64,000 nucleotides of DNA, from NCBI RefSeq assembly GCF_037392515.1, contig NC_090280.1, positions 22,759,118 through 22,823,117 of the forward strand, written 5' to 3'. Positions 10,010 through 58,635 of this stretch are shown in pieces. A program made the translations under genes and the position numbers. Under the pieces are notes generated by a model that saw only the letters and a list, made by a program, of their open reading frames with translations, was not told where the DNA came from and searched no databases. Positions within the stretch are counted from its first letter, which is position 1. The number at the start of each line of letters is the position of its first letter. The stretch is from Haliotis asinina (lineage: Eukaryota > Mollusca > Gastropoda > Lepetellida > Haliotidae).

Positions 10010-10540
10010 CTCATGTGGAACTGTACCGTCAGTTTAGGTTTCACCTAGTACTGTGGTCCTCTGTTGAGGAAGATGAAGGATGGAAAGACGTGTAGATGTG
10101 AAACTGTACCGTCAGTTTAGGTTTCACCTAGTACTGTGGTCCTCTGTAGAGGAAGATGAAGGATGGAAAGACGTGTAGATGTGGAACTGTACCGTCAGTT
10201 TAGGTTTTACCTGGTACTGTGGTCCTCTGTTGAGGAAGATGAAGGATGGAGAGACGTGTAGATGTGGAACTGTACCGTCAGTTTAGGTTTTACCTGGTAC
10301 TGTGGTCCTCTGTTGAGGAAGATGAAGGATGGAGAGACGTGTAGATGTGGAACTGTACCGTCAGTTTAGGTTTTAGCTGGTACTGTGGTCCTCTGTTGAG
10401 GAAGATGAAGGATGGAGAGACGTGTAAGTGTGGAACTGTACCGTCAGTTTAGGTTTCACCTGGTACTGTGGTCCTCTGTTGAGGAAGATGAAGGATGGAG
10501 AGATGTGTAGATGTGGAACTGATCCCGCAGGAGTCGTTCG
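10010..10540 (-). repeat. 83-bp minisatellite in the 3' end of gene A (7 units)
   Basis: The word CTGTACCGTCAG begins at 10021, 10104, 10187, 10270, 10353 and 10436, and its coding counterpart CTGATCCCGCAG at 10519: an exact 83-bp period. On the minus strand each unit repeats the final part of the coding sequence (QFHIYTSLHPSSSS onward), the stop codon and a few UTR bases. Only the first unit is coding; because 83 is not divisible by 3 the others are out of phase and lie after the stop. Units B and C have three units each. Confidence 0.9.
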
Positions 10541-10639
10541 TAATCGTATAGGGGTAAGACATCGTTGTTGGAAGCACGAGGTACATCACTGAAGTCATGG
10601 GATAACCTCTCTGCCATCACAGTGAGATATTCACCAAAT
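10456..10639 (-). CDS. Gene A last coding exon: cytoplasmic tail
   Basis: The acceptor is GATTACAG, entry is in phase 2, and there are 60 codons then TGA at 10456-10458. Residues run FGEYLTVMAERLSHDF, a short linker, then DVLPLYDYERLLRDQF and HIYTSL, and end in a Ser-rich piece. YERL and YTSL are spaced by seven residues (ITAM-like). DYERLL also fits the acidic dileucine endocytosis pattern [DE]xxxL[LI]. The end of this exon is the founder of the 83-bp repeat. Confidence 0.82.
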
Positions 10640-13600
10640 CTGTAATCACAACATTACACTTATGTTACACTTGCCCATAGGTGCATGTATTTTTCTTTCA
10701 AGCAGTGTGCAACGGAAATCACCTCCTATAAACCACTTCAACTATGGTCATAGATTTCCAAAACATTTTAAGCAAATTGTGCATCAGTTACATAGATACA
10801 TTTGCTACTTTCTCTGTCATTTCCACAGGTAATCGATGCCGGCGTTTACCTAAGATTTCTAAAGGTACGTTTAGTAAATGGTGTTTGACACAGAAGACAG
10901 CAACCGTTGATATGAAGATTTGTTCACTAGTTATTACGATGACTGACTCCAGCACTTAAGATAAAAACATGAAAATGTGTACCTGTTGTCCTGGTTCTCT
11001 GCAAGTAAAACAAAAGACTGAGTAACAGTAAAGAATTAGTCGTTCTCAGACTAGTTCATCAACATCACCAAAACTAGAACACCATAACTATGGCTTCATT
11101 ATGCTCATATGGGGAATCGAACCTGCGTCTGTGGCGTGAACACCCTATCCACTGGCCTACCGACCGCTCCATTACTGAATAAAGGAATCAAAACAACTTC
11201 ACAAACTAAAACGAGAAGAAAATATTGCAGCACGTCAAGGTGAACCACGGATATGCCCGTATACTGTTCGACGCTGCATTCAACAATATCCCAGCTAGAC
11301 TACGCTTGTCTGATACACGCCAGACTTGCCGAGAACACCCAGTGGTTGATATAAAGAGCGTCGATTTACGCAACTGGGATACGTCGGAAAAACATGCATG
11401 AGCATAATCAACCAGCGTTTCTCACCTGTTGTAACAAGCATGGTTGTTGAAGTTCTGACCAGGCCCTCACGTTGGGGTAAATTTTTGTTGGTTGTGGTGT
11501 GTTGGGGATTGGAGGGGTGGGGGTTGAAACTTACATTGCATGCAAAAATATTCATGCATTCGTTGTACCTTTCACGTCCGTGCAAACAAGAACAGTGACT
11601 GCTGCCACCACAACTGCCACAGCAGTCAGCATAACGGAGTAGACAGCTACGATGGGGACGATGTCGTCTACGTTTGCATCACCTTCTGATACAAGACAAA
11701 GATGACACATATTTGTATTAAGTATGATAATTCATGTGACAATATAGCGACGTATTTCACCATGGTGTATTTTCTAGTTCCTGTTAGAGCACTAAATAAC
11801 TTTATGACATAAATAATGTCAACTGACAAAACAGTATTTTGCTCTACAAGAACTATGACACAATAAAGTAAGCAAGCGATGAATAAGGAAGAATCATTCA
11901 CCGGGATGACCATTACAGCTCTCCAGACAAGTGGATCCTTTTCCCCAACACGGCCTATCACCAATATCTGGTAGTGCTTTAGGAACACTGAGAAATGTCC
12001 TAAGTATTCGGACATCTAGAATATCCGACTCTATTTACAATGTTATAGCTATTCTATTATGGCTATTTCAGACTAAATAATCGGGGGTTTTGGTCTCCTT
12101 GGTCGGTTTGAGACACGAGTTCTGTTCCAGGCTTCAGACACTAGACAGTTCCAGCTACGTTTACTCGACATATCAGTACCCTATACGGCAGTTCGAGTTT
12201 CACAGTCGTTACACATCATGCTAGTTGTTAACCTTCAGACACCAACCTTCTATTTCCTGGTAGCTCCCATCGTTTTCGTCTTCCCTGTGATACGACACCA
12301 CACTGGTAAAAGGGAACATTGAACGTGAGTATAATGAGAGGAAATTATTAAGCTGTGACACACTCTCAATTCATATCGCGCTCCTAGTCGTGTATAGTTT
12401 TGTCGGGTTGGTTTGTTGTTTAACGCCACACTCAGCAATATGACAACTATATGTTGACGATCTATAAATAAATGGTCTTGGATCACATAATCCAGTGTTC
12501 AACAGCACAAGCATCGATCCCGTTCGTCAGCTTTTACGACAAGTATGGGTTGATGAAAATCACTTTACCACGGGTAATTACACCAATGTGGTGATGAAAT
12601 ATTTATTCATCTTACTTGAAGATTGATGAACATACTCACCGATGACGAGCACATCCTCTCTCTGAAAGTTTAAAGTGTGTGGGAACAATTATGCATACAA
12701 ACTTAAAGTATATATTTATTTCGTGCACACTGATGTTACCATTCTTTCTCCATTTAGAAGTTTAAGAGTTTAAGAGATACTGTACATCATACGGTATGAG
12801 TTTTAGTAGAAGGTCAATCAGTGCTAATAGTTGTCAGAATTATAAAATGTTAATAGACCTGTAGTTTTGGTTGCAAACGGTTCCGGACTGTTTTTCAGAC
12901 ATTCTACATAACACTACACTTTAAATAATTCGTCTGACCTGTTTAACGTCATCTGAATCAACCGACGTGACGTACTAGAATGACGTCCAGCACCAACCTA
13001 CTATCTCCTCGTAGCCTCCGCCTGTGTCTGCGTCACGGGTGTAAGTGACAACGCTGGGGGAAGGAAATGTAGAAGGTGGTTGGAATCAAGGATATTTACA
13101 AAAAGCAATCCGCTGTCCTCAGAAACAAAATTTTGCAAAAGGACAAAATAGTTGTTACAGTTATATGTATGAATGTGTTCACAAAATGGGTAAGCAAGTT
13201 ATCAGTATTTGAAGCTCTTCTAACGTTTGCCTGAAAGAACGAAATCTTTTTGACACCAACAGCTCATTAGCGATGTGCCATTAATTCTGCTTGGGCTCAT
13301 GATCCACATATACTGCTACTGATAAGTGAAATAGAGCTAATCAAATCACTGTATTTGTGATTAAGTGTTTCCACAATAGCAGCTACTACATAATTTTAAG
13401 TCAGCTGGTTACACATTTTGCCTTACTCACCGATTATATGTGCATCCTTTACCTGAAACAAATAAATTTGTGTAAATAATGACATATCCACAATGTTCGA
13501 TGCAAAATAGAAGATAAACGAATTTCCGGTATAATTATACATCTTTGAAGTGGAAATAAATATCTTGCTATTTGTAGAACGACATGTTTATAGAACGACA

Positions 13601-16600
13601 TGTTTGTAGAACGACATGTTTGTAGAACAAACGCAACCTGAGTAACACCAGTGTCTTGAAGCATGAATGTCGATTAAAACTAGTGTCCTGGAGCCAATGT
13701 AAACATAAACTTGGAAACTGAAGTCCATTAAACATGTAAATTTGTGCACACTGTTGATATATATCCTCTTCAAGCATCATCTTGAAGGTTCCATACTGAA
13801 GTACTTTAGAAACGCGAGTATCATATTATCATTCATTATGGAGGGTGCAAAACGAACAGAAACTGTGCTCAAATTAATCTGACTTTCACAGATGAACTTG
13901 ACGCATACCAAGAAATGCCCACGTGACCCACCATTTGCTGGAAATCAACTTTTCAATTTTCCGTGAAAATGCATAAACGTGGCGTTTTCACAACACATTG
14001 TCAGATCAGTCAACTGTGTACCGAAATCACACCGAAATTTTGAACTGCACCAAATTGTTGACTTGGGCACAACATGTGATCGAGCACATCTTTGCCAACC
14101 ATGTGTCTAGCCCGAGATCGCCGCATACAAGTTCAAGCCAGCCTCCAGAACAGATATTACCATTCATAGAAGAAGGGATATCGTCAGTCTCCAGACGGTA
14201 CGATAGCGATTACGTCAGCAAGGGCTGCGTGCGCATAAGTATTCTATTTACTGACGAGTCCTGATTTCATCTCAGTCATGCGTATACAAGGATCAGAGTG
14301 ACATGGACAGCGTAACGGTGATTGTTGAGTTCAGCAGCGTTGAGGGAAGCGTATTACTAATGATTTGTTGAGAGACTGATAGTCATGACAGGACACGTGT
14401 GGACGTCTGCCGTAGTCGAGTTACAGCTCAAAATGATACTTACTGAGAACAAGAGTCGTTCCTGCTCCCAGCATGGCGCCAGATCAACGTCTTCACATTT
14501 TGCAGGAGGATTATGCAAATGACGGTCATAACCGTTACTGACATTGGCTCTGTGAAAGTTTTGAGCGCGTTTGGAAATAAATTTGATCCCTTCAACGTTA
14601 TCGTTAATTCAACTTTGCACTGACTACTTTTGTTTTTTCTTGTGTTTCAACCCTAAATGACAATTTCAGTGTCAAGAGGGACAAGTTCTTTTCTTCGTTT
14701 AAAACGGAAATTCAACGTCTTATCCCAATGGTGCGTTTCTAAAGTAGTTCAGTATACTTCACAGTCTCCTCTCACAATCTGTCCTCTTTCAAACTCTTCC
14801 TTAAAGACGGTCTCAGATTCCATTTCCCCACAAGAGACTTGGTTTTCTTCCTTGATGAATATTCACCATCAAGGACACTTTTACATTTAATCAAGATACA
14901 CCACAGACACGTCACAAATCACACCTAGAGAGAATCACTTAATATAGGTAGGACAAAAATCATCATTTCCTTGAAAATGTATCACATGTCAGTAGGAAGT
15001 GAAATAATTATCAGCTAGCTTTCTACTGAGTATGGGTGGAAATAGACATCAGACGCTACATGCCAAAGTATTGTAATATGTTTTGCAGACAAAGAAGAGG
15101 CATCAAATCAGTCCTTATTAGTACTGCTTAACATTTCTATAGGTGCATAGATGTACATGAGTTGTGGGGTAAAACGTTTTAAAGTACTACTCTGGTAACT
15201 ATCTGATCCCCCATCCCCACCTTCCTAACCAGCGCGTCGTTTTCCCAGACTGTCATACATTATTCACTACATATAAGAAGTGCAAAGGGATAACTTACTG
15301 ACGATGCACTGAACACATACACACGCACACACGCACACACGCACACACGCACACACGCACACACGCACTCACGCACACGCACAAGCATCCACTCAACACG
15401 CTATTAAGTGAGATTGGTATATGTAATTACTGAACCAAAGTGTTTGTGAGTTCTAGTCATTCACTGTCACATCACACCGTTTTACCTCCACGTCTCTGTT
15501 TTCTACAAACAACAACCATGACGACGACAGTGATGATCACGATCAGGATGGAGCAGACAGCAGTCACTGGGACGATGGAAACGACACCAGATTCATTAAG
15601 CTCACGTGCTGAAACATTTAATATGGACAATATTCAGTTTAGCATTGTATAATCCTGTTTACTTTTCAGAAAAAAATAACATCCAAGATATGTTGCTTTA
15701 TTTAAGGTACATGATGTGATTGAGTAAATGAGTGGAGTTTTATATCACTTATAACCCAGAAACATCACCCGTCTTAAGAAGATTTTAATTAGGTTCATGG
15801 CATGTCAACCGGGTTGACCCTTCCGATGTTCATCTAAAATGACACTTTCCAACTGCAATATAACCAGTTGCGTTCTCGATACAACACCCATCGATCCATC
15901 TTCATAGAGGGATCCAATAATAATGGTCAAGTTACCAGTGCTACTGTCATTGCATCAATTTGAAGGGAGTAAAAACTTTATTACATATCTCATGCAAATA
16001 TAATCTTGAATTTTACATATTCTGTCACAAAGCATGTTTCCGGAATCTGTGGAGGCCTTACTGAAGACCTCTAGTGTCAGGTTGCGTGATGCACTCCCAT
16101 GGCTGTTGTTGACGTGACACGTGTACTGTCCAGACACAGACACATCTATAGCTGGTATAGACAACACAGCCTTCCTGTGTCCTGTAATCACCATCTGTCT
16201 GGATGTGTCCCACCAGGTTACAGTGCAGGCAGGGTTACAGTCAGCAGAACATCTCACTGTTACAGGTTTCCCTTCTTCTACCTGCAGCTTGTCCCTTGTG
16301 CCGTGAAACTGTATCTGGTCAGGTCCATCTGCAAAGCATGTGATATAATCAGAAATAATAATTTGATAACTTGATATTTTCTTCTATCATACCAATACCA
16401 CTGTATATCAATTTCACTTGAATTAATATTTCATCAACTTTCGGTTTAGACTTTTGAAGTTGGTTAGGTTTTATTTTTTACTCAATGCCTATTCTACTTT
16501 TAGTGTTGATCACATCTACATCTGCTAGCCTTGTCGAGTCTAGGCTCACCAATATAAGACTCCCAGTTTCAAAGATCTTACTGTTGTCACGAAAATATTA

Positions 16601-18642
16601 CATTCAAATGCAAACGACGACACATTACGCACATTCTGTTTTCGTTCCTCTAAGTCATACGTGTACGTATCAGTCAGGTATTCCGACTGGATGGTCGACC
16701 GCGACCGCAGCAGGGGAAACGTCCAATGTTTTCTTTGTACGAGTTTGATAGCCGCTCAACTGTGATTTTGTTAACAGTGGGAATCTACAGTCAACTGTAT
16801 TTTGTATGTACACGTCCGATATTGTCATTTGTATGCTCCGCCTGACCAACGTTGACAGTTCGAGTCATGTATTATCTTGACGTTCCTGTATATCTCATCT
16901 GATGCCCTTACGATTGTATCTCTAATGATCAGTGCCTGTACCAGATATTGTCAACGTTTCATGCATTTTACCGTATTCTTAATTGTAAACCCAATATTGT
17001 CACGATTTTAAAAAGAAGCGTTTTTGAGGACAAAAACCCCTTGAGTGAGTGAGTGAGTAGGTTGAGTTTTACGCCGCACTCAGCAATATTCCAGCTATAT
17101 AGCAGCGGCCTATAAATAATCGAGTCTGGACCAGACAATCCAGTGATCAATAACATGACCATCGATCTGCGCAAATGGGAACCGATGACATGTGTCAACC
17201 AAGTCAGCGAGCCTGACCACCCCATTCCGTTAGTCGCGTCCTACGACAAGCAGAGTCGCCTTTTATGGCAAGCATAGGTTGCTGAAGGCCTATTCTACCC
17301 CGGGACCTTTACGGGTACTCGTCGATAAATCACTGTAGATTATTTTTCCCATAATTTTCTTGCATCTGTGCATGGTCAGAGTTTTCAGGGTCAAATCACA
17401 CACTCCTGACTGAAAATTGTAAACATGAAATTTTCATGCCATACTTTCAATCGCTTTGATCTGATTCAGTACATATTATGTATTGTTAGTTTTGTGTTGA
17501 TCTTTCGTATTTCAGCTGAGTGGTCCGTGCCCGTTTTTTGCTCATTTAAAATATATGTCCAGGTGAGAAACAATGACATTACATAATTTTAAAGTGTTCG
17601 TGTATATTGGACATAACACCTGACACCGCTTGCCTTTGAAGCTGAAAGCCTTCACCACAGATTCTGGCTGTGTTCTCTTCCGAAAGTTCTATATCAACGG
17701 ACACCAGTAATGCCTTTTTGTTAGCGCTATGAGTAAACATGGTGTGGAGTTTGGAGCTATATAAATTGACACATTATTGTGTAGCTGTCATTAAGTCCTA
17801 TCAGAACCACAAAGGTACTATCATAATAATGATTCAGAACATAACGGTTCTATGTAAGTTGTATGCTAAGTTGCATAGATATGCGAGGTTCCTGTACCGT
17901 AAACAAAGGTACGTTCTTACTCACAGAGGACATCCAGTACATGTTCGTGACTCCAGTCAGACTCCAGCCCCTCCTCCACAGCCTGGCAGCTGTAGGTGTC
18001 TCCCTGGTTCTCTCCGCTGACCTGGGTTATTGTCAAGTTATCTCCACCTGTTGGAGACTCATCACCAGATTCTAGGAGGGTCCTGTCCCTCCTCCAGATG
18101 TAGGTCATGGTCAGTTGGGGGTGGTCCGGGGGCAGACTCCGGGACGAGGAGTTGGAGCATGTGAGGGTGACATTCTCACCTGATACAGGTGAGGCAGGTC
18201 CGGTGATGGTAGGTGTGGTTGGCCTCTCTGTGAAAAAAATTTAACAGCTTCGCCGAGACCTTAACACCAGTACTAATCAACATGGTTTTACGAAATGTGT
18301 GAAAAACATTTTAAAATATGAATCCACTGAGACATAATGAACTAAATGAACTGAATGAACTAAATGCTCTGACACTTTTATTAATGACGTATTCACCTTT
18401 ATTGTCAATCAAATAAGCGCCAGCGACACGCTAATACTCCTAATCGGTTTGTTGATTAAATGTTCTACACAACATTTAATCAGTTGGCTGGACTAATCCC
18501 AAGGTCCGGCGTAAAAATGACATTAGATATGCTCGTTGTTGTTACCTTGACTGGCGCTCGGGATTATAGCAACAAGACAGGTGGATTCGGATATACTGCG
18601 AGTGAGTAGTTGGTTGGACTGTTGTTAACACGTAAGAACATT

Positions 18643-18678
<36 letters not shown>

Positions 18679-19558
18679 ATGCGATCTGTAAATAATCAAG
18701 TCTGGACCGGACAATCCCGTGACCAGCATCATGAGCATACATCTACGCAATTGGGATACGATGACATGTGTCAACCAAGTCAGCGAGTCTGACTACACAA
18801 TCCCATTAGTCGTCTCGTGCGACAAGCAAGGGGTAAAGAAGACCAATTCTAACCCGGATCTTCACGGGTATACTGTGAGTAGGCTTGCCATGTGTAACTC
18901 GACAAAAGCACATGCATGCACACGCACGTACACACACACGAGTCTTTATATATGGTTAATTACGTTTTAGTTTAGACGCATTCTTTTAGTTATCTACCGT
19001 TCTGTTAACTCCACTCAGTACTCACGTGCTACAACGAGGACATGTCTACATCCAGTAACATTCTCTCCATTGCTTCCCTGACAGTAGTAAGTACCAGCGT
19101 CCTGTACAGTAACATTGTAGATGGTAAACCTCAGCTGTCCGTTCTGTGATGGTGAGTCCTCCCCGGTGTATCGTATCCTGGTCCTGTAGCCAGTGTGACT
19201 GTTGTTGAATACCCATACACGGTGTGTCTTGGACTGGACCAGTAACAGTCTCTTAGATACAGAACCATTCCCCACTACAAAATACTGGAAGCTGACATTT
19301 TCTGGGTTCATGGCCATGGTAACATCTTCACCAGCACGTGTAACAGTGTGTGGGTATCCAATTGTCATGGACACTAGAGCTGTATACGAAAAGGTAATTA
19401 GAATCAGAACTCAACAACCCTAGATACAGACGTTAGACATTGCGTAAGATTAAAGTGAAAAGCAACTTAATCAGAGATTCAATATATATTTCAGTTTTCG
19501 AAAACAGATACATACCAAACCCACATAGTGCTACGGACACAATGGAACCCAGAAACAT
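10456..19558 (-). CDS. Gene A: Ig-superfamily transmembrane receptor with ITAM-like tail
   Basis: Span of a complete multi-exon gene; every exon is open and has GT-AG borders. Predicted products are 427 aa (signal, V, Ig-1, Ig-2, TM2, 16-nt exon, tail) or 471 aa (TM1-CT1-E1 or E2 in place of TM2). It should be a type I surface protein with three Ig domains outside and a signalling tail inside. On the 427-aa form the tail has Y371 (GEYLTV), Y398 and Y400, and Y411; Y400-ERL and Y411-TSL are seven residues apart, fitting YxxL/I-x(6-8)-YxxL/I. The start at 19558 is chosen because its exon is 43 nt long in both leader classes; an in-frame ATG at 19654 would add 32 residues. The fold and motif are seen in sequence; an immune role is inference. 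Adhesion or self-recognition is an alternative. Confidence 0.82.
10983..10998 (-). CDS. Gene A 16-nt microexon
   Basis: AGAACCAGGACAACAG lies between TTTTACTTGCAG and GTACAC. It enters in phase 1 and leaves in phase 2, which is exactly what the tail exon needs; it encodes ENQDN plus part of an Arg codon. The sequence is identical in units A, B and C. Confidence 0.75.
11108..11172 (-). repeat. tRNA-like sequence (SINE head or tRNA relic), unit A
   Basis: On the minus strand, AGGCCAGTGGATAGG resembles a pol III A box and GGTTCGATTCC is a perfect B box. The acceptor stem does not close, so it is not a functional tRNA gene. It lies in the intron between TM2 and the 16-nt exon, with copies at the same place in units B and C. 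Confidence 0.55.
11569..11685 (-). CDS. Gene A TM2 exon
   Basis: 117 nt, phase 1-1, between GTATCAG and GTACAA. It encodes an acidic stalk (EGDANVDD), a hydrophobic helix (IVPIVAVYSVMLTAVAVVV and following residues) and a short basic end (VCTDVKG). It aligns with TM1 through the shared pattern IVPxxAVxS...VLVC, so the two are duplicates. It can follow Ig-2 directly and join the 16-nt exon in frame. Confidence 0.78.
12413..12575 (+). mobile_element. SINE, diverged copy in the E2-TM2 intron (unit A)
   Basis: It retains GCCACACTCAGCAATATGAC, a diverged AATAAATGGTC stretch and ATCCAGTGTTCAACA. Copies at the same place in B (31512-31660) and C (53320-53480) show an insertion older than the unit duplications. 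Confidence 0.7.
12640..12661 (-). CDS. Gene A microexon E2 (22 nt)
   Basis: 22 nt between TTTCAG and GTGAGT. Read in phase 0 it encodes REDVLVI plus one base and leaves in phase 1, which fits the 16-nt exon or TM2. All 22 bases are identical in the three units. It resembles E1 in length, phase and pattern (xxDxxxI). Including both E1 and E2 would shift the frame, so they appear mutually exclusive. There is no transcript evidence. Confidence 0.58.
13431..13452 (-). CDS. Gene A microexon E1 (22 nt)
   Basis: 22 nt between TTGTTTCAG and GTGAGT. In phase 0 it encodes VKDAHII plus one base. It matches E2 in length and phase. The copies in B (VEDAHII) and C (VKDTHLI) vary, unlike E2, but keep the frame and both splice sites. 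Confidence 0.58.
14444..14547 (-). CDS. Gene A cytoplasmic exon CT1
   Basis: 104 nt entering in phase 1 and leaving in phase 0 at GTAAGT. It encodes NVSNGYDRHLHNPPAKCEDV followed by DLAPCWEQERLLFS. It fits only after TM1 and before E1 or E2. The acceptor region reads TTTCACAGAG: the second AG, 2 nt downstream of the one used in B, restores the shared frame here. Use of the first AG would put E1 on an immediate TAA. The function of the segment is unknown. Confidence 0.62.
15309..15386. repeat. CACACG microsatellite
   Basis: Tandem ACACGC units in the CT1-TM1 intron. The matching place in unit B (34362-34412) has a shorter tract. Confidence 0.85.
15486..15608 (-). CDS. Gene A TM1 exon
   Basis: 123 nt, phase 1-1, between GTTTCAG and GTAAAA. 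It encodes RELNESG, a helix of about 24 residues starting VVSIVPVTAVCSILIVIITV, then CRKQRRG, a strong basic stop-transfer signal. It is an alternative to TM2 for anchoring the ectodomain and leads to CT1. Confidence 0.8.
16062..16328 (-). CDS. Gene A Ig-2 exon
   Basis: 267 nt, phase 1-1, acceptor TTTGCAG, donor GTAAGG. The Ig domain has VRC in strand B, VTWWD in strand C and SGQYTCHVNN in strand F. An extra pair of cysteines sits right after strand B (CSADCNPAC). N-glycosylation sites are present at NNS and in the final strand (NLT). This is the membrane-proximal domain. Confidence 0.85.
17044..17325 (+). mobile_element. SINE, near full length, in the Ig-2/Ig-1 intron (unit A)
   Basis: It starts with GAGTGAGTGAGT, continues through GCCGCACTCAGCAATATTCC, AATAATCGAGTCTGGACCAG and AACCGATGACATGTGTCAAC, and ends near CTACCCCGGGACC. 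It is shared with unit B at 36184-36450. Confidence 0.85.
17925..18227 (-). CDS. Gene A Ig-1 exon
   Basis: 303 nt, phase 1-1, between TTTTTCACAG and GTGAGT. It encodes RPTTPTITGP, ENVTLTC (strand B Cys), MTYIWRRD (strand C Trp) and DTYSCQAVEE (strand F Cys), and ends LDVLC. This is an ordinary I/C2-type Ig fold between the V and Ig-2 domains. It is open here, whereas unit B has a TAG in place of the Gln codon in ENQGD. Confidence 0.85.
18598..18880 (+). mobile_element. SINE with internal AT tract (unit A)
   Basis: It carries CTGCGAGTGAGTAGTTGGTT, AATCAAGTCTGGACCGGACA and ATGACATGTGTCAACCAAGT. An AT dinucleotide tract at 18644-18677 has grown inside it. The unit B counterpart is 41230-41490. 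It lies in the V/Ig-1 intron. Confidence 0.8.
18644..18677. repeat. AT microsatellite
   Basis: An uninterrupted ATAT run inside the SINE. The unit B copy has only a short ATATAT here. Confidence 0.9.
19026..19379 (-). CDS. Gene A V-like Ig exon
   Basis: 354 nt, phase 1-1, acceptor TATACAG, donor GTGAGT. It encodes a V-type fold ending NVTVQDAGTYYCQGSNGENV. The DxGxYYC signature of strand F is present, but strand B reads EDVTMAMN: Met stands where the conserved Cys should be. The usual Trp of strand C is also missing here (QYFVVGN), although unit B keeps it (YYVWVN). A further Cys lies in VTGCRHV. There are several Asn-glycosylation sites. It is the distal domain and the likely ligand-contact surface; the ligand is unknown. 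Confidence 0.82.
19516..19558 (-). CDS. Gene A signal-peptide exon
   Basis: 43 nt from ATG to a GTATGT donor in phase 1. It encodes MFLGSIVSVALCGF, continued by A-L-V-S from the V exon; cleavage near there is plausible. An open frame extends upstream to an ATG at 19654 (leader beginning MFIRKYC), so a longer start is possible. The short start is preferred because the unrelated MSV-type leaders have the same 43-nt exon. Confidence 0.7.
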
Positions 19559-23080: not shown

Positions 23081-23429
23081 GTGCTACAACGAGGACATGT
23101 CTACATCCAGTAACTTCCTGTCCATTGTTTCCCTGACAGTAGTAAGTACCAGCGTCCTGTACAGTAACATTGTAGATGGTAAACCTCAGTTGTCCGGTCT
23201 GTGATGGTGAGTCCTCCTCGGTGTATCTGATCCTGGTCCTGTAGCCGACTACTGTTGAGTACCTCTACACGGTGTGACTTGGACTGGACCAGTAACAGTC
23301 TCTTAGATACCGAACCATTTACCCATACATAATATAAGAAGCTGACATTGTTTGGGTTCATGGCCATGGTAACATCTTCACAAACACGTGTAACAGTGTA
23401 TGGGTATCCAGTTGTCATGGAGACTAGAG
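23081..23429 (-). pseudogene. Broken V-like Ig exon (psi-V3)
   Basis: Same exon as psi-V1 and the functional V exons, with intact acceptor and GTGAGT donor. It is 349 nt instead of 354: five bases are missing after the NSS codons, which shifts the frame and destroys the part with the strand F Cys. Its signal exon is also broken. This is a different lesion from psi-V1 and psi-V5. Confidence 0.8.
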
Positions 23430-23693
23430 CTGCACTCAAAACAAATATTACTCATGAAAACAAGGCTGACATAAATATTCAAGCACATTATTTAAGCCCT
23501 CTCAATATATTACAAGTTGACAGATACATGGCACCTATACAGGCAAGCAAACGATATGTAAACCAGAAATTAAGGCGTCAAACTATCTAGTTTCTCTGAA
23601 TAATGTTTTATTAGAGAAAACTGGTCACTTATAAAAAGTCATGTAAAGCTCATGTAATTCAACTAATGTTCTTTTCAGCTGACAGGTACATGC

Positions 23694-29384: not shown

Positions 29385-29590
29385 AGACACGTGCATATGT
29401 GGAACTGTACCGTCAGTTTGGGTTTCACCTGGTACTGTGGTCCTCTGTTGAGGAAGATGAAGGATGGAGACACGTGCATATGTGGAACTGCACCGTCAGT
29501 TTAGGTTTCACCTAGTACTGTGGTCCTCTGTTGAGGAAGATGAAGGATGGAGAGACGTGTAGATGTGGAACTGATCCCGCAGGAGTCGTT
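29385..29590 (-). repeat. 83-bp minisatellite in the 3' end of gene B (3 units)
   Basis: Unit starts at 29405, 29488 and 29571, exactly 83 bp apart. The last is the coding copy; two lie after the stop. Four fewer units than gene A. Confidence 0.9.
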
Positions 29591-29691
29591 CGTAATCGTA
29601 TAGGGGTAAGACATCGATGTTGGAAGCACGAGGTTCATCACTGAAGTCATGGGATAATCTCTCTGCCATCACAGTGAGATATTCACCACAT
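29508..29691 (-). CDS. Gene B last coding exon: cytoplasmic tail
   Basis: 184 nt, same phase and length as in A, ending TGA. Residues CGEYLTVMAERLSHDF, then DVLPLYDYERLLRDQF and HIYTSL, keep the ITAM-like spacing and the dileucine pattern. It differs from A at only a few positions (CGE for FGE, DEPRASNID for DVPRASNND). Confidence 0.8.
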
Positions 29692-30034: not shown

Positions 30035-30050
30035 CTGTTGTCCTGGTTCT
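30035..30050 (-). CDS. Gene B 16-nt microexon
   Basis: Identical to the gene A microexon, with the same CTTGCAG acceptor and GTACAC donor; phase 1-2. Confidence 0.75.
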
Positions 30051-30670: not shown

Positions 30671-30787
30671 CTTTCACGTCCTTGCAGACAAGAACAGTGA
30701 GAGCTGCCACCACAACTGCCACAGCAGTCAGCATAACGGAGTAGACAGCTACGATGGGGACGATGTCGTCCACGTTTGCATCACCTT
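30671..30787 (-). CDS. Gene B TM2 exon
   Basis: 117 nt, phase 1-1. Stalk EGDANVDD, helix IVPIVAVYSVMLTAVAVVV and following residues, end VCKDVKG. One charge differs from A (K for T). Confidence 0.78.
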
Positions 30788-34541: not shown

Positions 34542-34664
34542 CTCCACGTCTCTGTTTTCTACAAACAACAACTATGACGACAATGGCGATGACCACGATC
34601 AGGATGGAGCAGACAGCAGTCACTGGGACGATGGAAACGACACCAGATTCATTAACCTCGCGTG
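34542..34664 (-). CDS. Gene B TM1 exon
   Basis: 123 nt, phase 1-1, between GTTTCAG and GTAATA. Helix of valine and isoleucine residues after VVSIVPVTAVCSILIVV, then CRKQRRG. Confidence 0.8.
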
Positions 34665-35458: not shown

Positions 35459-35716
35459 TGAAGACCTCTAGTGTCAGGTTGCGTGATGCACTCCCATGGC
35501 TGTTGTTGACGTGACACGTGTACTGTCCAGACACAGACACATCTATAGCTGGTGTAGACAACACATCCTCCCCGTGTCCTGTAATCACCATCTGTCTGGA
35601 TGTGTCCCACCAGGTTACAGTGCAGGCAGGGTTACAGTCAACGGAACATCTCACTATCACAGGTTTCCCCTCTTCTACCTCCCATGTGCCGTGAAACTGT
35701 ATCTGGACAGGTCCAT
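35459..35716 (-). CDS. Gene B Ig-2 exon
   Basis: 258 nt, phase 1-1, acceptor ATCTGCAG, donor GTAAGG. VRCSVDCNPAC, VTWWD and SGQYTCHVNN are present. Three codons shorter than in A between the first strand and EEGKPV. Open throughout. Confidence 0.83.
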
Positions 35717-38691: not shown

Positions 38692-38991
38692 AGAGGACAT
38701 CCAGTACATGTCCGTGACTCCAGTCAGACTCCAGCCCCTCTTCCACAGCCTGGCAGCTGTAGTTGTCTCCCTAGTTCTCTCTGCTGACGTGGGGTATTGT
38801 AAGGTCATCTCCACCTGTAGGAGACTCATCACCAGATTCCAGCAGGGTCCTGTCCCTCCTCCAGATGTAGGTCATGTTCAGAGGGGGGTGGTCCGGGGGT
38901 AGACTCCGGGACGAGGAGGAGCATGTGAGGGTGACATTCTTACCTGACACAGGTAAGGCAGGTTCGGTGATGGTAGGTGTGGCTGGCTTCT
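38692..38991 (-). pseudogene. Gene B Ig-1 exon with premature stop
   Basis: 300 nt, phase 1-1, acceptor TTTTCACAG, donor GTGAGT. The Ig fold is intact up to DDLTIPHVSREN, then TAG (38771-38773) replaces the CAG of ENQGD, followed by YSCQAVEE. It is a single C-to-T change in the coding strand. Skipping this exon preserves the reading frame. Confidence 0.8.
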
Positions 38992-41627: not shown

Positions 41628-41981
41628 GTGCTACAACGAGGACTTGTCTACGTCCAGTAACTTCCTGTCCATTGCTTCCCTGACAGTAGTAAGTACCAGC
41701 GTCCTGTACAGAGACATTGTAGATGGTAAACCTCAGCTGTCCGGTCTGTGATGGTGAGTCCTCCCCGGTGTATCTGATCCTGGTCCTGAAGCCGGTGTGG
41801 CTACTGTTGATTACCACTACACGGTGTGACTTGGGCTGGACCAGTAACAGTCTCACAGATACCGAACCATTCACCCATACATAATACACAAAGCTGACAT
41901 TCTGTGCGTTCATGGCCATGGTAACATCTTCACCAACACGTGTAACAGTGTAAGGGTATCCAGTTGTCATGGAGACTAGAG
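41628..41981 (-). CDS. Gene B V-like Ig exon
   Basis: 354 nt, phase 1-1, acceptor TATACAG, donor GTAAGT. It encodes MTTGYPYTVTRVGEDVTMAM, then YYVWVNGSVSV with the strand C Trp retained, and VQDAGTYYCQGSNGQEV. Strand B again has Met in place of Cys. The extra Cys of the last strand is Arg here (VTGRRQV). Confidence 0.8.
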
Positions 41982-42121: not shown

Positions 42122-42164
42122 CAAACCCACATAGTGCTACGGACACAATGGAACCCAGAAACAT
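42122..42164 (-). CDS. Gene B signal-peptide exon
   Basis: 43 nt, ATG to GTATGT donor, encoding MFLGSIVSVALCGF as in gene A. The open frame continues upstream through further ATGs. Confidence 0.7.
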
Positions 42165-45415: not shown

Positions 45416-45758
45416 GTCCTACAACGGGGACCTGTCTACATCCAGTAACTTCCTGTCCATTGCTTCCCTGATAGTAGTAAGTACCAGCGTCATTGTAGAT
45501 GGTGAACCTCAGCTGTCCGGCCTGTGATGGGGAGTCCTCCCCCGGTGTATCTGATCTTGGTCCCGTAGCCGGTGTGACTGTTGTTGAGTCCCTCTAGCCG
45601 GTGTGAGCTAGGGATGACTACTGACAGTTTCTTAGATATCGAGCCATTCATAAACACGGAGTATATTGAGCTGGCGTTCTCCGGGTTCATGGTCATGGTA
45701 ACATCCTCGCCAACACGTGTAACAGTGTATCGGTATCCAGTTGTCATGGAGGCTAGAG
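45416..45758 (-). pseudogene. Broken V-like Ig exon (psi-V5)
   Basis: 343 nt with intact acceptor and GTGAGT donor. An extra C in a run of Cs shifts the frame at RYTG, and a 12-nt deletion removes the codons for VQDA just before strand F. Strand B again lacks Cys (VTMTM). This is the most altered of the three broken V exons, yet its signal exon is intact. Confidence 0.8.
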
Positions 45759-46024
45759 CTGCACTCAAACCAAATATTACTCATGAAAACAAGGCTAACA
45801 GTTGACATAAATATTCAAGCTCATCATTGAAGCCCGCTCAATATATTACAAGTTGATAGGTACATACCACATATGCAGGTACGCAAACGAATTGTGAATC
45901 AGAAATTAACGCGTCAAAATATCTAGTTTCTCTAAAAAAATATTTTCTTAGACAAAACTGGTCACTTATATAATGTCATGTAAAGCTCATTTAATGTGGT
46001 TTTTTTTAGCTGACAGGTACATAC

Positions 46025-47224: not shown

Positions 47225-47288
47225 TACAATATGACGTAATGCAAAGGATTCATTTTATGTCAGTTTTACAAACGGTTTTTTACTTGAT

Positions 47289-47693
47289 TTGTACTGCAGT
47301 AATAACGATTCCTACTGGAAATTACTTCGGTTCTGGATTAAAGATTCAGGATCCGTCATTTGTATTCCGCCTTTGAAACAAAATGATGCAGATGAAAATC
47401 CAACTTTATTCACTGATATGCAGAAAGCAGAGAAACTTAATCAGTATTTTCAGTCTATATCTAGTATTAACGAAGTAAACACTGATTTGCCATTCTCTGA
47501 CAAACGCACTGGTTCTATTTTGGATTGTGTAACTATTTATGTAAATGAAGTGTCTGATATAATCCAATGTTTACATCTTGAAAAAGCTTCTGGCCCGGAC
47601 AGAATCAGTCATAAGTTTCTTAAAAGTGTAGCACATTCAATAAGTATTCCACTATGCATGTTATTCAATCAATCATTAAAGACTCGTATATAA
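47289..47693 (+). pseudogene. LINE ORF2 remnant: pre-RT linker and first RT segment
   Basis: Open frame of 134 codons ending at TAA. It contains EKASGPDRISHKFLKSVAHS and IPLCMLFNQSLKT, the region before the reverse transcriptase palm. Confidence 0.75.
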
Positions 47694-47750
47694 ATCAAGT
47701 ATGAGGAAAGAATCACATGTAATTCCCTTATTAAAAAGGGCGACCGCTCA

Positions 47751-48967
47751 ATGGTCTCTAACTATCGACCTATATCCTTGATCAGTTGTGTGGGCAAGGT
47801 GTTTGAGACAGTGATGTTCAAACATCTGTACAACTATTTTCATGTAAATCAATTATTATTATATAAGTACCAATCAGGATTTCAGTCTGGTCATTCAACT
47901 GTCCATCAATTACTTGAAATTTATGACCAAATATGTGAGGCCTTAGATGATAAAAAAAACACTATTGTATGGTGTTTTGTGATGTCTCTAAAGCTTTTGA
48001 TCGTGTGTGGCCTAAAGGTTTATTGTTGAAATGAGAAAAGTACGGAATTCATGGTTCATTGTTAAATTGGCTAGCTGATTACATAAGTAATCGTTCACAA
48101 AGCGTCTTTGTAAATGGAGCCCTATCCAAGCCGAGGTATTTACAAGCTGGTGTCCCACAAGCTGATGACTTAGACTGCTTGACACGATTATTTGCTGATG
48201 ATTCGTCGCTAGGCTTATCTTCTCATGATCATCTATTCACTGGAAGAGAACTGAATTCAAACTTGGAAAGACTGCGGGCTTGGGCAAAGCGGTGGCTTAT
48301 AACATATAATCCTGATAAAACTGAGGCAATTATTTTCACCTTACATAATAATATTGAGGCATTCAATCTCTACTTCAACGGAGTTCTGGTCAAAACCGTT
48401 GAAAATCATAAACATTTGGGATTAACGTTTACAAAAGATTGTATATGGTCTGACCACATTGATAATATTGTAAAAACAACTTCAAAAATGATTTCTTCTC
48501 TACGTAAACTCAAATTATTATTACCGCGCTGTGTATTGAATAGAATATATGTCATGTTCATAAGACCCCATTTCGAATATGCGTGTGAGGTATGGGATGG
48601 GTGTGCTCAATACCAAGCAAATAGATTAGAACAACTGCAATTAGAAGCAGCAAGAATTGTAACAGGCTCACCCAAATATACACATCATGAACATATGTAT
48701 CATGAAACTGGTTGGGAATCTTTAGCAGATCGTAGGAGAAAGCGAAAACGTTGTCTTTTTTACAAAATACAGCATAATATGGCACCATCGTACCTTAATG
48801 ATCTTGTTCCTGGGAAGGTAGCGTCTAAAAGTAACTATAATCTTCGTAACTCCGACGATGTCTCGCTTCCCTTCTCCCGTTTGAAGTTTTCTTATAATTC
48901 ATATTTTCCATCCAAAATTAGAATGTGGAATGAATTTCCAGTTGAAGTTAGAAAAGCGTGTCACTGA
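47751..48967 (+). pseudogene. LINE ORF2 remnant: reverse transcriptase
   Basis: Two frames (47751-48029 and 48059-48967) separated by a frameshift and a TGA. The second covers LLNWLADYISNRSQSVFVNG, GVPQ, FADDSS, a thumb region (KHLGLTFTKD) and FIRPHFEYACEVWDG. The segment between GVPQ and FADD is missing, so no active enzyme is expected. Confidence 0.8.
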
Positions 48968-49296
48968 ATTCTTTTAAATCAAATATTGTTGTAACACAAA
49001 ACACAGCTCCCAAATACTTTGATTTTGGACCGAGAATCACTAATATCACCCTTACAAAACTACGTTACATGTGTAGTCAACTGAATTTCGATCTATTCCG
49101 TGCTGGCATAATAAATAACCCCAAATTTTCTTGTAGATATATATGTGAAAATTCTCATCATTACCTATTTGGCTGTCAACTATATACTCAACAGAGATCT
49201 ACCATGATGGCTAATTTACGCAGTGTTACCAATGTTACTATAAACTCCGAGTTACTGCTACGTGGCAATGCAGATCTGACTGATCATGCAAATTAA
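48958..49296 (+). pseudogene. LINE ORF2 C-terminal remnant
   Basis: Open frame of 112 codons overlapping the previous one in another phase. It contains a Cys-x3-Cys-x3-His-x5-Cys-like pattern (CRYICENSHHYLFGC), as in many animal LINE tails. Confidence 0.7.
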
Positions 49297-50690: not shown

Positions 50691-50694
50691 CAGC

Positions 50695-50700: not shown

Positions 50701-51069
50701 GATTGATCAAAACTGTTTTTGCCAAGTCAGTGTTGTTGATATGCTATGATATACGGTGAGTAAAGCTCAAAGCTTTTCCTCACAAGCGTCCGCTTTCTGA
50801 AACGACATAATGTTCGGTAACTGCATACATCATGGCGTTGTACAGACAACATTCGCCGGGTATGTAAAGGACAAGCAGGAACAAATCTCACATTTCTGTG
50901 GATATCGGTACAGTCCTCTTTAAGAGTACCTCTGTAAAAGAGGCAATCGTGGAAAACATTTTCTCTTATTGGGTGTGTAGTAAGTGGAGTACTCTTGTTT
51001 TTCCAGCTGAAATGATGAGCTAGCTGAGGTGTTAAACTGTATAGGTTCTGTGGAAGAAGTTGAAGAGTG

Positions 51070-51275
51070 GAGAGACGTATAGATGTGGAACTGTTCCGTC
51101 AGTTTAGGCTTCACCTGGTACTGTGATCCTCTGTTGAGGAAGATGAAGAGTGGTGAGACGTGTAGATGTGGAACTGAAATGTCAGTATAGGCTTCACCTG
51201 GTACTGTTGCCATGTGCTGAGGAAGATGAAGGATAGAGAGACGTGTAGATGTAGAACTGTTCCCTCAGGGGTAGC
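51070..51275 (-). repeat. 83-bp minisatellite in the 3' end of gene C (3 units)
   Basis: Unit starts at 51091, 51174 and 51257, each 83 bp apart. More diverged between units than in A. The right-most is the coding copy. Confidence 0.85.
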
Positions 51276-51377
51276 TCGTAATCATGTAGAGGTAAGAAAT
51301 CGTTGTTGGAAGCACGAGGTACACCAATGAAGTCATGGGATAATCTCTCTGCCATCACAGTAAGGTAGTCACCACAT
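51194..51377 (-). CDS. Gene C last coding exon: cytoplasmic tail
   Basis: 184 nt, same length and phase as A and B, open to TGA. Residues CGDYLTVMAERLSHDF, then FLPLHDYELPLREQF and YIYTSL. The distal YTSL is kept, the proximal YxxL is lost (Pro at +3), the paired Tyr before it is His, and the dileucine is lost. Confidence 0.78.
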
Positions 51378-51723: not shown

Positions 51724-51739
51724 CTGTTGTCCTGGTTCT
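51724..51739 (-). CDS. Gene C 16-nt microexon
   Basis: Identical to the A and B microexons; acceptor ACATGCAG, donor GTACAT. Confidence 0.72.
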
Positions 51740-52263: not shown

Positions 52264-52380
52264 CTTTTACGTCCTTGCAGACAAGAACAGCGACTGCTGC
52301 CACCACCACTGCCACAGCAGTCAGCATAACGGAGCAGACAGCTACGACAGGGACGATGTCGTCTACGTTTGCTTCACCCT
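52264..52380 (-). CDS. Gene C TM2 exon
   Basis: 117 nt, phase 1-1. Stalk EGEANVDD with the helix after IVPVVAVCSVMLTAVAVVV, end VCKDVKG. Open. Confidence 0.75.
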
Positions 52381-56147: not shown

Positions 56148-56270
56148 CTCCACGTCTGCGGTTTCTACAAACAACAAATATGACGACAACGGCGATGACC
56201 ACGATCAGGACGGAGCAGACAGCAGTCACGGGGACGATGGAAACGACATCAGATTCAGTAACCTCACGTG
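56148..56270 (-). CDS. Gene C TM1 exon
   Basis: 123 nt, phase 1-1, between TTTCAG and GTAATA. It has a helix starting VVSIVPVTAVCSVLIVVIAV and ends CRNRRRG. Open. Confidence 0.75.
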
Positions 56271-56713
56271 CTGAAATATTTAATATGGACAATATTCAGT
56301 TCAGTATAATATAATCATGTTTACTTTTCAGAAAAAAATAACATCCAAGACACGTTGCTTTATTTAAGTTACATGATGTGCTTACAAAATACCAGACATA
56401 TAATGTACACCAGGATTAGAAATATAACCAGGACTGCCCCGTATCTGCGAAATTGAGTGGGTAGGTGAGTGAGTATATGAGTGAAGTTTTGTGCCACTTA
56501 TACCCCAAAATCACGCCTCTTCAGAAGTTCATCTGAAATAACACTTTCCAACTGCATTGCAACCTGTTGCGTTCTCGCTACAACGCCCATCGACTACAAC
56601 GCCTATTTTCACAGACGGATTCAACGGTAATGGTCAAATTGCAAGTGATACAGTCATTGGATCCAAAACCATTCTAAGAACTTCATCGATTTTACAGTCA
56701 ACCAGCCAGTCGG

Positions 56714-56950
56714 TCAATCAGCCAGTTAGTCAGTCAGTCAGTCAGTCAGTCAGTCAGTCAGTCAGTCAGTCAGTCAGTCAGTCAGTCAGTCAGTCAGTCA
56801 GTCAGTCAGTCAGCCAGTCAGCCAGTCAGTCAGCCAGTCAGTCAGTCAGTTAGTCAGCGAGTCAGACAGTTAGTCAGCGAGTCTGTTGGTCCGTCAGTCA
56901 GCAAGTCAGACAGACAGTCAGTCAGTCAGCCAGTCAGTCAGTCAGTCATA
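56714..56950. repeat. CAGT tetranucleotide array (unit C)
   Basis: Long CAGT repeat with scattered CAGC variants; the longest version of the array at 35142-35260. The open frame full of Ser-Gln-Val comes from the repeat. Confidence 0.9.
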
Positions 56951-57515
56951 GAGTCAGTCAACTTGATACAACAATGTCACTCTTTACGTCAACACAACAA
57001 GAGACCATGCAACGTCAGCGTTCAACAATTTCCAAGTAACATCACTGGTCTTCAGGAGACTTCAATCTGATTCAGACATGTTTAATGGGTTGACACATGC
57101 GATGTTCATCTGGAATAATCTTTCTCACTGGACATCCCCATCAACCTCACTGTCTACGCCAGTTCAACAGGAGGCCATGCAACGTTGGAAACATCAGCGA
57201 TCTAACTAGTGCAGGCGAAGTTCTAAAGAGACGGAAAAGTGTCGAGTTTGGTGTCACATATAAAGGGAAGATTAGGAGGCATCTGTGCCGCTTGGATGCT
57301 TTTTGATTTTACAAAAACATTGTCGTGATATTGACATTTGATTGACGTTCTTATCAATATTACGAGTTGATACGGCTAATGATTTTGAATCGTTGAGTAC
57401 CACTGCCGTTGGTGTTCTCGCAGGTGTTCCATCACGTTAAGGTGAATGGAAAGGCAGATGTCATCCAAAAGACAGGTTGTATGTTATAGATTCTATTGTA
57501 CAACTGTTGACTTAC

Positions 57516-57776
57516 AGAAGACATCCAGTGTCAGGTTCCGTGATGCACTTCCATGTGTGTTGTTGACGTGACACATGTACTGTCTAGACACAGACACATC
57601 TACAGCTGGTATAGACAACACAGCCTTGCTGTGTCCTGTCATCACCATCTGTCTTGATGTGTCCCACCATGTTACAGTGCAGGCAGGGTTACAGTCAGCA
57701 GAACATCTCGTCGTTACAGGTTTCCCTTCCTCCAGTTTGCCCCTTATGCCGTCAAAGTGTATCTGGTCAGGTCCAT
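57516..57776 (-). CDS. Gene C Ig-2 exon
   Basis: 261 nt, phase 1-1, acceptor ATTGCAG, donor GTAAGT. TRCSADCNPAC, VTWWD and SRQYMCHVNN are present. Open. Confidence 0.82.
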
Positions 57777-58057: not shown

Positions 58058-58132
58058 GCCCCGTTCCTCAAAGCGATCGTAATTCTCATACTTTACCACA
58101 GACGTACGACAGTTCGCTTTGAGGAACGGGGC
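58058..58132. repeat. 75-bp foldback element
   Basis: The ends GCCCCGTTCCTCAAAGCGA and TCGCTTTGAGGAACGGGGC are exact inverse complements of 19 bases around a 37-bp centre. A MITE-like insertion in the Ig-2/Ig-1 intron of unit C only. Confidence 0.7.
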
Positions 58133-58335
58133 CCAGCCGCAGTTTTGAACATTTCAACTGATCATTGAAGCAAACCTGTCGCTCATTCCTATCAGGACTT
58201 TCACAATAATGATTTCTGTTCTGTTTACACAGAACTTCTGCGAAAGAAACTTGTCACAAAAGTGTGATTCAGCAGAGTTTCAAGGATACTTAATACGAGG
58301 TTCTGTTACCTAAAGCAAGGTAGGTTCTTACTCAC

Positions 58336-58635
58336 AGAGAACATCCAGCACATGTTCTTGACTCCAGTCAGACTTCAGTCCCTCCTCCACAGCCTGGCAA
58401 CTGTAGATGTCTCCCCAGTTCTCTCTGCTGGCGTGAATTATTGTCAGGTCATCTCCACCTGTAGGAGACTCATCACCAGATTCTAGCAGGGTCCTGTCCC
58501 TTCTCCAGATGTAGGTCATGGTCAGTGGGGGATGGTCCTGGGGTAGACTCCGGGAGGTGGAGGAGCATGTAAGGGTGACATTCTCACCTGATACAGGTGA
58601 GGCAGGTCCGGTGATGGTAGGTGTGGTTGGCCTCT
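58336..58635 (-). CDS. Gene C Ig-1 exon
   Basis: 300 nt, phase 1-1, acceptor TTTCACAG, donor GTGAGT. ENVTLTC, MTYIWRRD and DIYSCQAVEE are present. Open: the Gln that became a stop in unit B is Trp here (ENWGD). Confidence 0.82.

What the first reader, a model, noticed from the sequence alone, without database searches (positions are those of the whole stretch)
10456..58635. Tandem array of molluscan Ig receptors with an ITAM-like cytoplasmic tail
Seen: three near-collinear minus-strand units with the same exon order (signal, V, Ig, Ig, TM, tail); in A and B the last exon encodes YERL-LRDQFHI-YTSL, with the reading frame fixed by every upstream exon phase. Known: YxxL/I-x(6-8)-YxxL/I is the ITAM through which vertebrate immune receptors recruit tandem-SH2 kinases of the Syk/ZAP-70 type. 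Inference: a multigene family of activating-type recognition receptors in a mollusc. I do not recall a described ITAM-bearing V-Ig-Ig family in gastropods.
Basis: partly seen in the sequence, partly recalled or inferred. Interest (0 to 1): 0.9.

Follow-up and report, generated by a model that had tools for sequence, protein, structure and literature searches.

The report
Abalone activating and inhibitory receptor cluster
A snail genome, probably an abalone's, carries dozens of near-copies of an immunoglobulin-type cell-surface receptor, most with a tail that looks built to switch cells on, next to a second set with a similar outer part and a tail that looks built to switch them off, an arrangement best known from vertebrate immune cells.

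Summary
The ITAM-like tail is real and not chance, but the window shows only part of the story. Unit A is an intact gene model: signal, V, Ig, Ig, TM, a 16-nt microexon, and a tail with YERL-x7-YTSL. Unit B has the same tail but a stop in its second Ig exon. Unit C has lost the first motif (YELP). The organism's own genome holds at least 57 such tail exons: 55 in 1.2 Mb, 2 more at 28 Mb. Both tyrosines and the spacing are kept in 57 of 57; the strict ITAM is met in 42 of 57; the segment is under purifying selection. A neighbouring 3-Mb cluster joins similar V/Ig/Ig exons to another tail: in 20 of 26 copies two ITIMs (LTYADL, V[VI]YE[EQ]I) 26 residues apart. V exons of the two clusters intermix in part (one ITIM clade rejected, AU p 0.00015). 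The genome also has Syk-type, SHP-2 and Src-family SH2 exons. Best reading: a gastropod family of paired activating/inhibitory Ig receptors, working like vertebrate KIR/LILR/CEACAM families. No transcript, binding or signalling evidence exists here, and some copies may be assembly duplicates. New variant of a known kind.

The parts
19516..19558 (-). Unit A signal-peptide exon, MFLGSIVSVALCGF, phase 1 out
   Evidence: same in unit B
19026..19379 (-). Unit A V-type Ig exon (phase 1-1)
   Evidence: Pfam V-set 2.4e-10 on the assembled protein
17925..18227 (-). Unit A second Ig exon (phase 1-1)
   Evidence: Pfam Ig hits on the assembled protein
16062..16328 (-). Unit A third Ig exon (phase 1-1)
   Evidence: Pfam
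15486..15608 (-). Unit A TM-a exon with basic stop-transfer CRKQRRG (phase 1-1)
   Evidence: homologous TM exon in family-2 loci
11569..11685 (-). Unit A TM-b exon (phase 1-1), possibly alternative to TM-a
   Evidence: donor AAAG/GTAC in 29 of 31 loci
10983..10998 (-). Unit A 16-nt microexon, phase 1 to 2
   Evidence: same length with AG acceptor and GT donor in 31 of 31 aligned loci (read by eye)
10456..10639 (-). Unit A tail exon (coding part with stop), FGEYLTV...DYERLLRDQFHIYTSL...
   Evidence: acceptor AG in 30 of 31 loci
10498..10542 (-). Unit A ITAM-format motif YERL-x7-YTSL
10013..10521 (-). 83-bp minisatellite whose first unit overlaps the 3' part of the tail exon (also 29382-29573 and 51047-51268)
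42122..42164 (-). Unit B signal exon
41628..41981 (-). Unit B V exon
38692..38991 (-). Unit B second Ig exon, in-frame TAG at 38771-38773
35459..35716 (-). Unit B third Ig exon
34542..34664 (-). Unit B TM-a exon
30671..30787 (-). Unit B TM-b exon
30035..30050 (-). Unit B 16-nt microexon
29508..29691 (-). Unit B tail exon with YERL-x7-YTSL (end set from unit A by equal length)
58336..58635 (-). Unit C second Ig exon
57516..57776 (-). Unit C third Ig exon; joining TM-b makes a stop, joining TM-a does not (phases read)
56148..56270 (-). Unit C TM-a exon
52264..52380 (-). Unit C TM-b exon
51724..51739 (-). Unit C 16-nt microexon
51194..51377 (-). Unit C tail exon; first motif YELP (Leu lost), second YTSL kept
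23101..23451 (-). Distal V exon, frameshifted
45490..45780 (-). Distal V exon, frameshifted, F-strand Cys changed
3124..3450 (-). V exon of the next unit, nonsense TAG

Best explanation
The locus is part of a germline-encoded array of paired activating and inhibitory Ig receptors of a gastropod. Each gene makes a type I membrane protein: signal, V-type Ig, two further Ig domains, one TM helix, tyrosine tail. In the cluster that includes the window the tail ends in an ITAM-format pair, YxxL-x7-YxxL. When ligand clusters the receptor, a Src-family kinase would phosphorylate both tyrosines, which would dock the tandem SH2 domains of the genome's Syk-type kinase and activate the cell. In the neighbouring cluster (24.2-27.2 Mb) similar ectodomains carry LTYADL and V[VI]YE[EQ]I, two ITIMs 26 residues apart, which would dock SHP-2 and damp the cell. 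Shown: exon structure, phases, copy number, tyrosine conservation, pN/pS well below 1 in both tails, partly intermixed V exons, presence of Syk-type, SHP-2 and Src-family SH2 exons. Inferred: expression, splicing, phosphorylation, docking, cell type, ligands.
For: 57 full-length tail exons: 55 at C1:22.35-23.57 Mb, 2 at 28.06-28.09 Mb. Both Tyr and the 7-residue spacing in 57 of 57; strict ITAM in 42 of 57. pN/pS 0.42 (95% 0.27-0.75) for the tail and 0.33 (0.15-0.73) for the 17 ITAM codons. Most of the intron before the exon varies more than the exon; its last 60 bases do not. All junctions of the unit A model join in frame. 26 family-2 tail exons: two strict ITIMs in 20, one in 2, none in 4; the Tyr pair is 26 apart in 25 of 26; pN/pS 0.41 over 15 distinct sequences, no interval computed. 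V exons of the two clusters intermix: 7 label changes, at least 3 forced by well-supported branches, 0 of 200 bootstrap trees with one clade, AU p 0.00015. Both Ig2 classes occur in both clusters (15 sequences). Partners: Syk-type exons in order at C7:18.11-18.13 Mb (SYK 2e-39; ZAP-70 8e-11), SHP-2 (9e-87), Src-family SH2 (best Fyn-related kinase 9.6e-33).
Against: No transcript, protein or signalling data. 15 of 57 tails fail the strict ITAM (V, F or P at +3 of the first Tyr, or F at +3 of the second); 4 of 26 family-2 tails fail both ITIMs, and L096, the one family-2 model joined end to end, is of that kind. V labels are clustered, not freely mixed: 7 changes against a shuffled mean of 14, 0 of 500 shuffles as low. 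Diversifying selection on V is not shown: pN/pS 0.84 (0.58-1.22) overall, 2.6 (0.79-11.4) in the CDR3-like loop. The number of wholly intact genes was not determined. No other species could be searched. Tail labels of V exons rest on cluster position. Near-identical copies may include haplotype duplicates.
Confidence: 0.7

Rival explanations
1. The two YxxL motifs are endocytic sorting signals (YxxPhi for the AP-2 adaptor), not an ITAM; the array is a set of scavenger or uptake receptors.
For: First motif DYERL is close to the classical DYQRL sorting signal (recalled). Residues at +3 of the first Tyr include V (9 of 57) and F (1 of 57), which YxxPhi allows and strict ITAM does not.
Against: Spacing of 7 is fixed in 57 of 57; a +3 Pro in 4 of 57 fits neither; the sister cluster carries tandem ITIMs with fixed spacing of 26; Syk and SHP-2 type SH2 exons are present. 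The two roles can coexist.
Confidence: 0.12
2. The receptors signal through ITAM/ITIM but serve self, allo- or gamete recognition rather than defence.
For: ITAM/ITIM-type motifs occur in allorecognition or candidate allorecognition Ig genes of Hydractinia and Botryllus (PMC12065747 passages). Two-sided repertoires with shared ectodomains suit missing-self logic (inference).
Against: Solitary snails do not fuse (recalled); no polymorphism or expression data here. Cannot be separated from defence with sequence alone.
Confidence: 0.25
3. The array is largely decayed or inflated by assembly: one or a few working genes, many pseudogenes and haplotype duplicates, and the motif is inherited rather than maintained.
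For: B has a stop in Ig2, C a broken motif and a stop in the V exon placed before it, distal V exons are dead. Some Ig3 rows have stops (several run past the exon end, at least two do not). Of 16 chosen pairs of loci 9 are at least 99% identical.
Against: 47 distinct tail DNA sequences, frames open through the motif in 57 of 57, ITAM codons pN/pS 0.33. Of the first 63 Ig2 rows, 1 has a stop (unit B); split rows further down suggest a few frameshifts.
Confidence: 0.1
4. The main product is a short-tailed form: the microexon is usually skipped, which ends the protein at DLVNISL, so most copies act as signal-less decoys.
For: Skipping the 16-nt exon shifts the frame to an early stop; microexons are often regulated (recalled).
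Against: The ITAM frame is under purifying selection, so the long form must be made at least some of the time.
Confidence: 0.06

Closest known systems
Vertebrate paired Ig receptors (KIR, LILR/PIR, CEACAM, FcR-like families)
   Same: Clustered multigene Ig receptors, similar ectodomains with opposite tails, ITAM or ITIM (families recalled; search listings and abstract starts). Best PDB sequence match of unit A's ectodomain is carcinoembryonic antigen (1.3e-20), which shows Ig-fold kinship, not orthology.
   Different: Mollusc; ITAM is in the receptor's own tail; ectodomain is V-Ig-Ig with an atypical V domain (no B-strand Cys evident); orthology not tested.
Oyster IgSF receptors CgIgIT / CgIgIT2 and the 'BCR-like' oyster signalling receptor
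   Same: Molluscan Ig receptors with ITAM or ITIM signalling. Seen only as passages and reference titles in the review PMC11999971; that review says CgIgIT2 has an ITAM while the cited title calls it inhibitory.
   Different: CgIgIT2 is described there as one protein with five Ig domains; here dozens of clustered genes in two tail classes. The primary paper PMC6994640 is not held.
Botryllus fester co-receptors (FcoR)
   Same: 53 loci, type I, V-type Ig plus two C2 Ig domains, tails that can carry ITIM or hemITAM, in the fuhc locus (PMC12065747 passages).
   Different: Tunicate; has a sushi domain; hemITAM rather than a two-Tyr ITAM; paired with fester genes.
Hydractinia Alr family
   Same: 41-member Ig family with V-set and I-set domains (PMC11999971 passages) and ITAM/ITIM motifs in candidate allorecognition genes (PMC12065747 passages).
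   Different: Cnidarian allorecognition complex; domain order and tails not compared here.
Gastropod FREPs
   Same: Diversified snail Ig immune molecules (PMC11999971 passages).
   Different: Secreted Ig-fibrinogen proteins (recalled); no fibrinogen domain found here.

Membership tests
ITAM-bearing receptor | YxxL/I-x(6-8)-YxxL/I in a cytoplasmic tail | tested here: met
   Units A and B; 42 of 57 genomic copies strict, both Tyr in 57 of 57; in frame after a TM exon in unit A. Not met in unit C and 14 other copies
ITAM-bearing receptor | Motif conserved by selection | tested here: met
   pN/pS 0.33, 95% 0.15-0.73 among paralogues
ITAM-bearing receptor | Motif kept in orthologues of other species | not testable with these tools
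   No other mollusc genome is held
ITAM-bearing receptor | Phosphorylation and Syk-type SH2 docking | not testable with these tools
   Only the partner's presence was tested: Syk-type tandem SH2 exons
Paired activating/inhibitory receptors | Similar ectodomains on opposite tails | tested here: met
   V exons intermix in part, AU p 0.00015 against one ITIM clade, though labels are clustered; both Ig2 classes in both clusters
Paired activating/inhibitory receptors | Inhibitory members carry ITIM | tested here: met
   20 of 26 tails with two strict ITIMs, 2 with one, 4 with none
Paired activating/inhibitory receptors | Opposite signalling through shared ligands on the same cells | not testable with these tools
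   No expression or binding data
Ig superfamily, V-type plus C2/I-type | Ig domains by profile | tested here: met
   V-set 2.4e-10, Ig_2 1.2e-20, I-set 1.1e-16, each above its Pfam cut-off
Canonical V domain | Intersheet disulfide (B- and F-strand Cys) | tested here: inconclusive
   F-strand YYC present; no Cys at the expected B-strand place in 22 of 22 ITAM-cluster V exons, by eye; structure prediction was off
FREP | Fibrinogen domain | tested here: not met
   No such Pfam hit on the assembled protein

The most novel reading that the evidence does not exclude
A gastropod counterpart of the leukocyte receptor complex that arose independently: more than 80 receptor tail exons in two neighbouring megabase clusters, in which V exons have moved between an ITAM tail and a tandem-ITIM tail, with a further on/off switch in splicing (16-nt microexon, two TM exons), giving haemocytes balanced activating and inhibitory recognition.
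Probability: 0.35. Interest if true: 0.92.

Novelty: new variant of a known kind. Interest (0 to 1): 0.8.

Why it matters
Large two-sided receptor repertoires, with activating and inhibitory members sharing ectodomains, are the basis of NK-type recognition in vertebrates (recalled). If the same design exists in a mollusc on this scale, it would be a further animal lineage, beside Botryllus and Hydractinia, in which Ig receptor arrays use ITAM/ITIM logic, and it would give a solitary, farmed invertebrate in which missing-self or counter-pathogen models can be tested directly. Abalones also suffer heavy disease losses (recalled), so a variable receptor array is a natural place to look for differences in resistance.

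Tried and rejected
Chance motif: rejected, since the pattern is common in six frames (27 other matches) but conservation in 57 of 57 paralogues and pN/pS are not chance. Direct TM-to-tail splicing as the coding form: rejected, wrong frame. A 29-nt candidate exon between TM-b and the microexon: dropped, not conserved in length. Family-2 tail exons inside the window: none found by tblastn. In L096 the first tail exon has two possible acceptors; I used the one that keeps the frame. Structure prediction of the V domain: not available, so no fold search was made. A first attempt to find tail exons by regular expression found 0 of 57 and was replaced by coordinates. The first signal-exon scan found no candidate in the right place; a looser one did. 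The pN/pS sets are partial: third-Ig extraction caught 21 of 30 loci, TM-a 27 of 30, TM-b 16 of 31; for Ig3 (ITAM cluster 0.75, 0.41-1.81), TM-a (ITAM cluster 0.76, 0.42-1.57) and TM-b (0.50, 0.25-1.26) the intervals include 1. Only 3 family-2 loci were fetched at length. The opening pattern search was only to see whether the genome was held. Literature: searches listed no gastropod ITAM/ITIM Ig array by title or start of abstract; only openly licensed papers are held.
Full report
WHAT IS THERE. The window is C1:22759118-22823117 of a 1.14-Gb genome in 159 contigs. On the minus strand it holds three collinear units. Unit A gives a complete gene model at GT/AG sites that I chose: signal 19558-19516, V 19379-19026, Ig2 18227-17925, Ig3 16328-16062, TM-a 15608-15486, TM-b 11685-11569, a 16-nt microexon 10998-10983, tail from 10639 to the stop at 10456. 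The intron between TM and microexon is phase 1, that between microexon and tail phase 2. With either TM exon the product ends ...GEYLTVMAERLSHDFSDVPRASNNDVLPLYDYERLLRDQFHIYTSLHPSSSSTEDHSTR. Pfam gives V-set 2.4e-10 and four Ig models at 1.1e-16 or better.

CORRECTIONS TO THE FINDING. Unit B carries a TAG in Ig2; a near copy at C1:23131298 has none. Unit C reads YELP at the first motif. The V exon placed before it lies outside the window and has a TAG; joining its Ig3 to TM-b makes a stop, joining TM-a does not (phases read). Three distal V exons are dead. It has the same length and splice dinucleotides in 31 of 31 aligned loci. Skipping it ends the protein at DLVNISL. In locus L026 at 22.348 Mb I see TM-a but no TM-b between Ig3 and the tail, which supports TM-a as a working partner. 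The YTSL half overlaps the first unit of an 83-bp minisatellite; the array probably grew out of the exon end (inference).

THE FAMILY. A tail-peptide search found 57 full-length tail exons, 55 at 22.35-23.57 Mb and 2 at 28.06-28.09 Mb (150 of 332 candidates scored). I read all 57: 30 as loci, 26 by coordinates, one in the window. Both tyrosines are present in 57 of 57 with spacing 7. The strict motif holds in 42 of 57; of the other 15, 14 have V (9), P (4) or F (1) at +3 of the first Tyr and one has F at +3 of the second. One copy (L038) ends early, after YTSLHP. A third tyrosine upstream (EYLTV or DYLTV and variants) is kept in 55 of 57. There are 43 distinct peptides and 47 distinct DNA sequences. 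Pooled pN/pS is 0.42 (0.27-0.75) for the tail and 0.33 (0.15-0.73) for the ITAM codons; it is 1.14 for the last 12 codons. Four tails, unit C among them, read YELP; by position, the V exon before three of the four has a TAG.

THE SECOND TAIL. The third Ig exon also occurs many times at 24.2-27.2 Mb, 93% identical in DNA to unit A in the two fetched loci that cover it. Its 3' exons differ: in L096 TM-a is followed by four exons in phase, ending in NDDGLTYADPALELP...EEPAVYEEIDF. A search with the last exon found 26 copies, 25 at 24.2-27.15 Mb and one at 2.96 Mb, none in the ITAM cluster. All 26 were read: 20 have two strict ITIMs (LTYADL and V[VI]YE[EQ]I), 2 have one, 4 have none; L096 belongs to the last group. 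The Tyr pair is 26 apart in 25 of 26, pN/pS 0.41 over 15 distinct sequences. The V-exon tree of 22 ITAM-cluster and 20 ITIM-cluster exons needs 7 changes of label, at least 3 of them forced by well-supported branches; 0 of 200 bootstrap trees has one clade. Holding the ITIM exons together is rejected, AU p 0.00015. Against free exchange: the labels are clustered (0 of 500 shuffles as low as 7), 15 of 39 inner branches are open and the bootstrap had not settled. Tail labels of V exons rest on cluster position. Two Ig2 classes, about 45% identical, both occur in both clusters (15 sequences, 4 from the ITIM cluster).

PARTNERS. An SH2 search gave 49 matches. Exons in order on C7 match SYK (2e-39) and ZAP-70/SYK (8e-11). 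Exons on C16 match SHP-2 (9e-87). Two exons on C7 match Src-family SH2 domains (best 9.6e-33). Kinase and phosphatase domains were not read.

MECHANISM. Shown: anatomy, copy number, conservation, partly shared ectodomains, partner SH2 exons. Inferred: ligand-driven clustering, Src-family phosphorylation, Syk docking on the ITAM, SHP-2 docking on the ITIM pair, opposite outputs. The main rival on mechanism is that the tail motifs are endocytic signals; the sister ITIM tail and fixed spacing argue against it as the whole story. Whether the ligands are microbial or self is open.

SELECTION ON V. In 22 V exons the framework stretch is conserved (pN/pS 0.36, 0.18-0.79), the CDR3-like loop is at 2.6 but with interval 0.79-11.4, and the whole domain at 0.84 (0.58-1.22). 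Diversifying selection is suggested, not shown.

ORGANISM. Four matches to a recalled red-abalone lysin, on C14 (best E 5e-6, 38-59% identity), fit an abalone or near relative, probably not one of the Californian species (inference).

CAUTIONS. I compared 16 chosen pairs of loci: 9 are at least 99% identical, the others 92-99% in their best piece; window unit A and its copy 333 kb away are 98.7-98.9%. Haplotype duplication in the assembly is possible. Genome searches score only the best candidates, so counts are lower bounds. How many genes are intact from end to end was not determined. No RNA evidence was available.

PRIOR ART. ITAM- or ITIM-bearing Ig receptors are reported in oyster (review PMC11999971, passages only), Botryllus and Hydractinia (PMC12065747, passages only). 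My nine searches listed no gastropod array of this kind. Hence: new variant of a known kind.

Noticed in passing
C1:2.9-28.9 Mb (mostly outside window): Ig2-like exons are spread over much of contig C1: of 133 matches only one lies elsewhere (C8). The whole arm may be an Ig-receptor region.
   Followed up: no
C1:22.33-23.6 Mb: Stretches of the array recur at 99-100% identity, and unit A recurs 333 kb away at about 98.8%; recent segmental duplication or unpurged haplotypes.
   Followed up: partly
window 47235-49296: Broken plus-strand reverse-transcriptase remnant between units B and C: RVT_1 5.9e-7 in 47694-48026; the next open frame (48035-48964) matched no Pfam family.
   Followed up: partly
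window 39491-40223, 56695-56960, 62072-62715: Long simple or tandem repeats, including a 12-bp/8-bp array and a roughly 212-227-bp array.
   Followed up: no
C1:22386200-22397331: The 83-bp minisatellite is greatly expanded downstream of one tail, with dozens of units scored in the tail search.
   Followed up: no
C14:26671887-26685725: Lysin-like exons, possibly two copies side by side.
   Followed up: no
ITIM-cluster V exon L161: F-strand Cys changed to Tyr in an otherwise open V exon.
   Followed up: no
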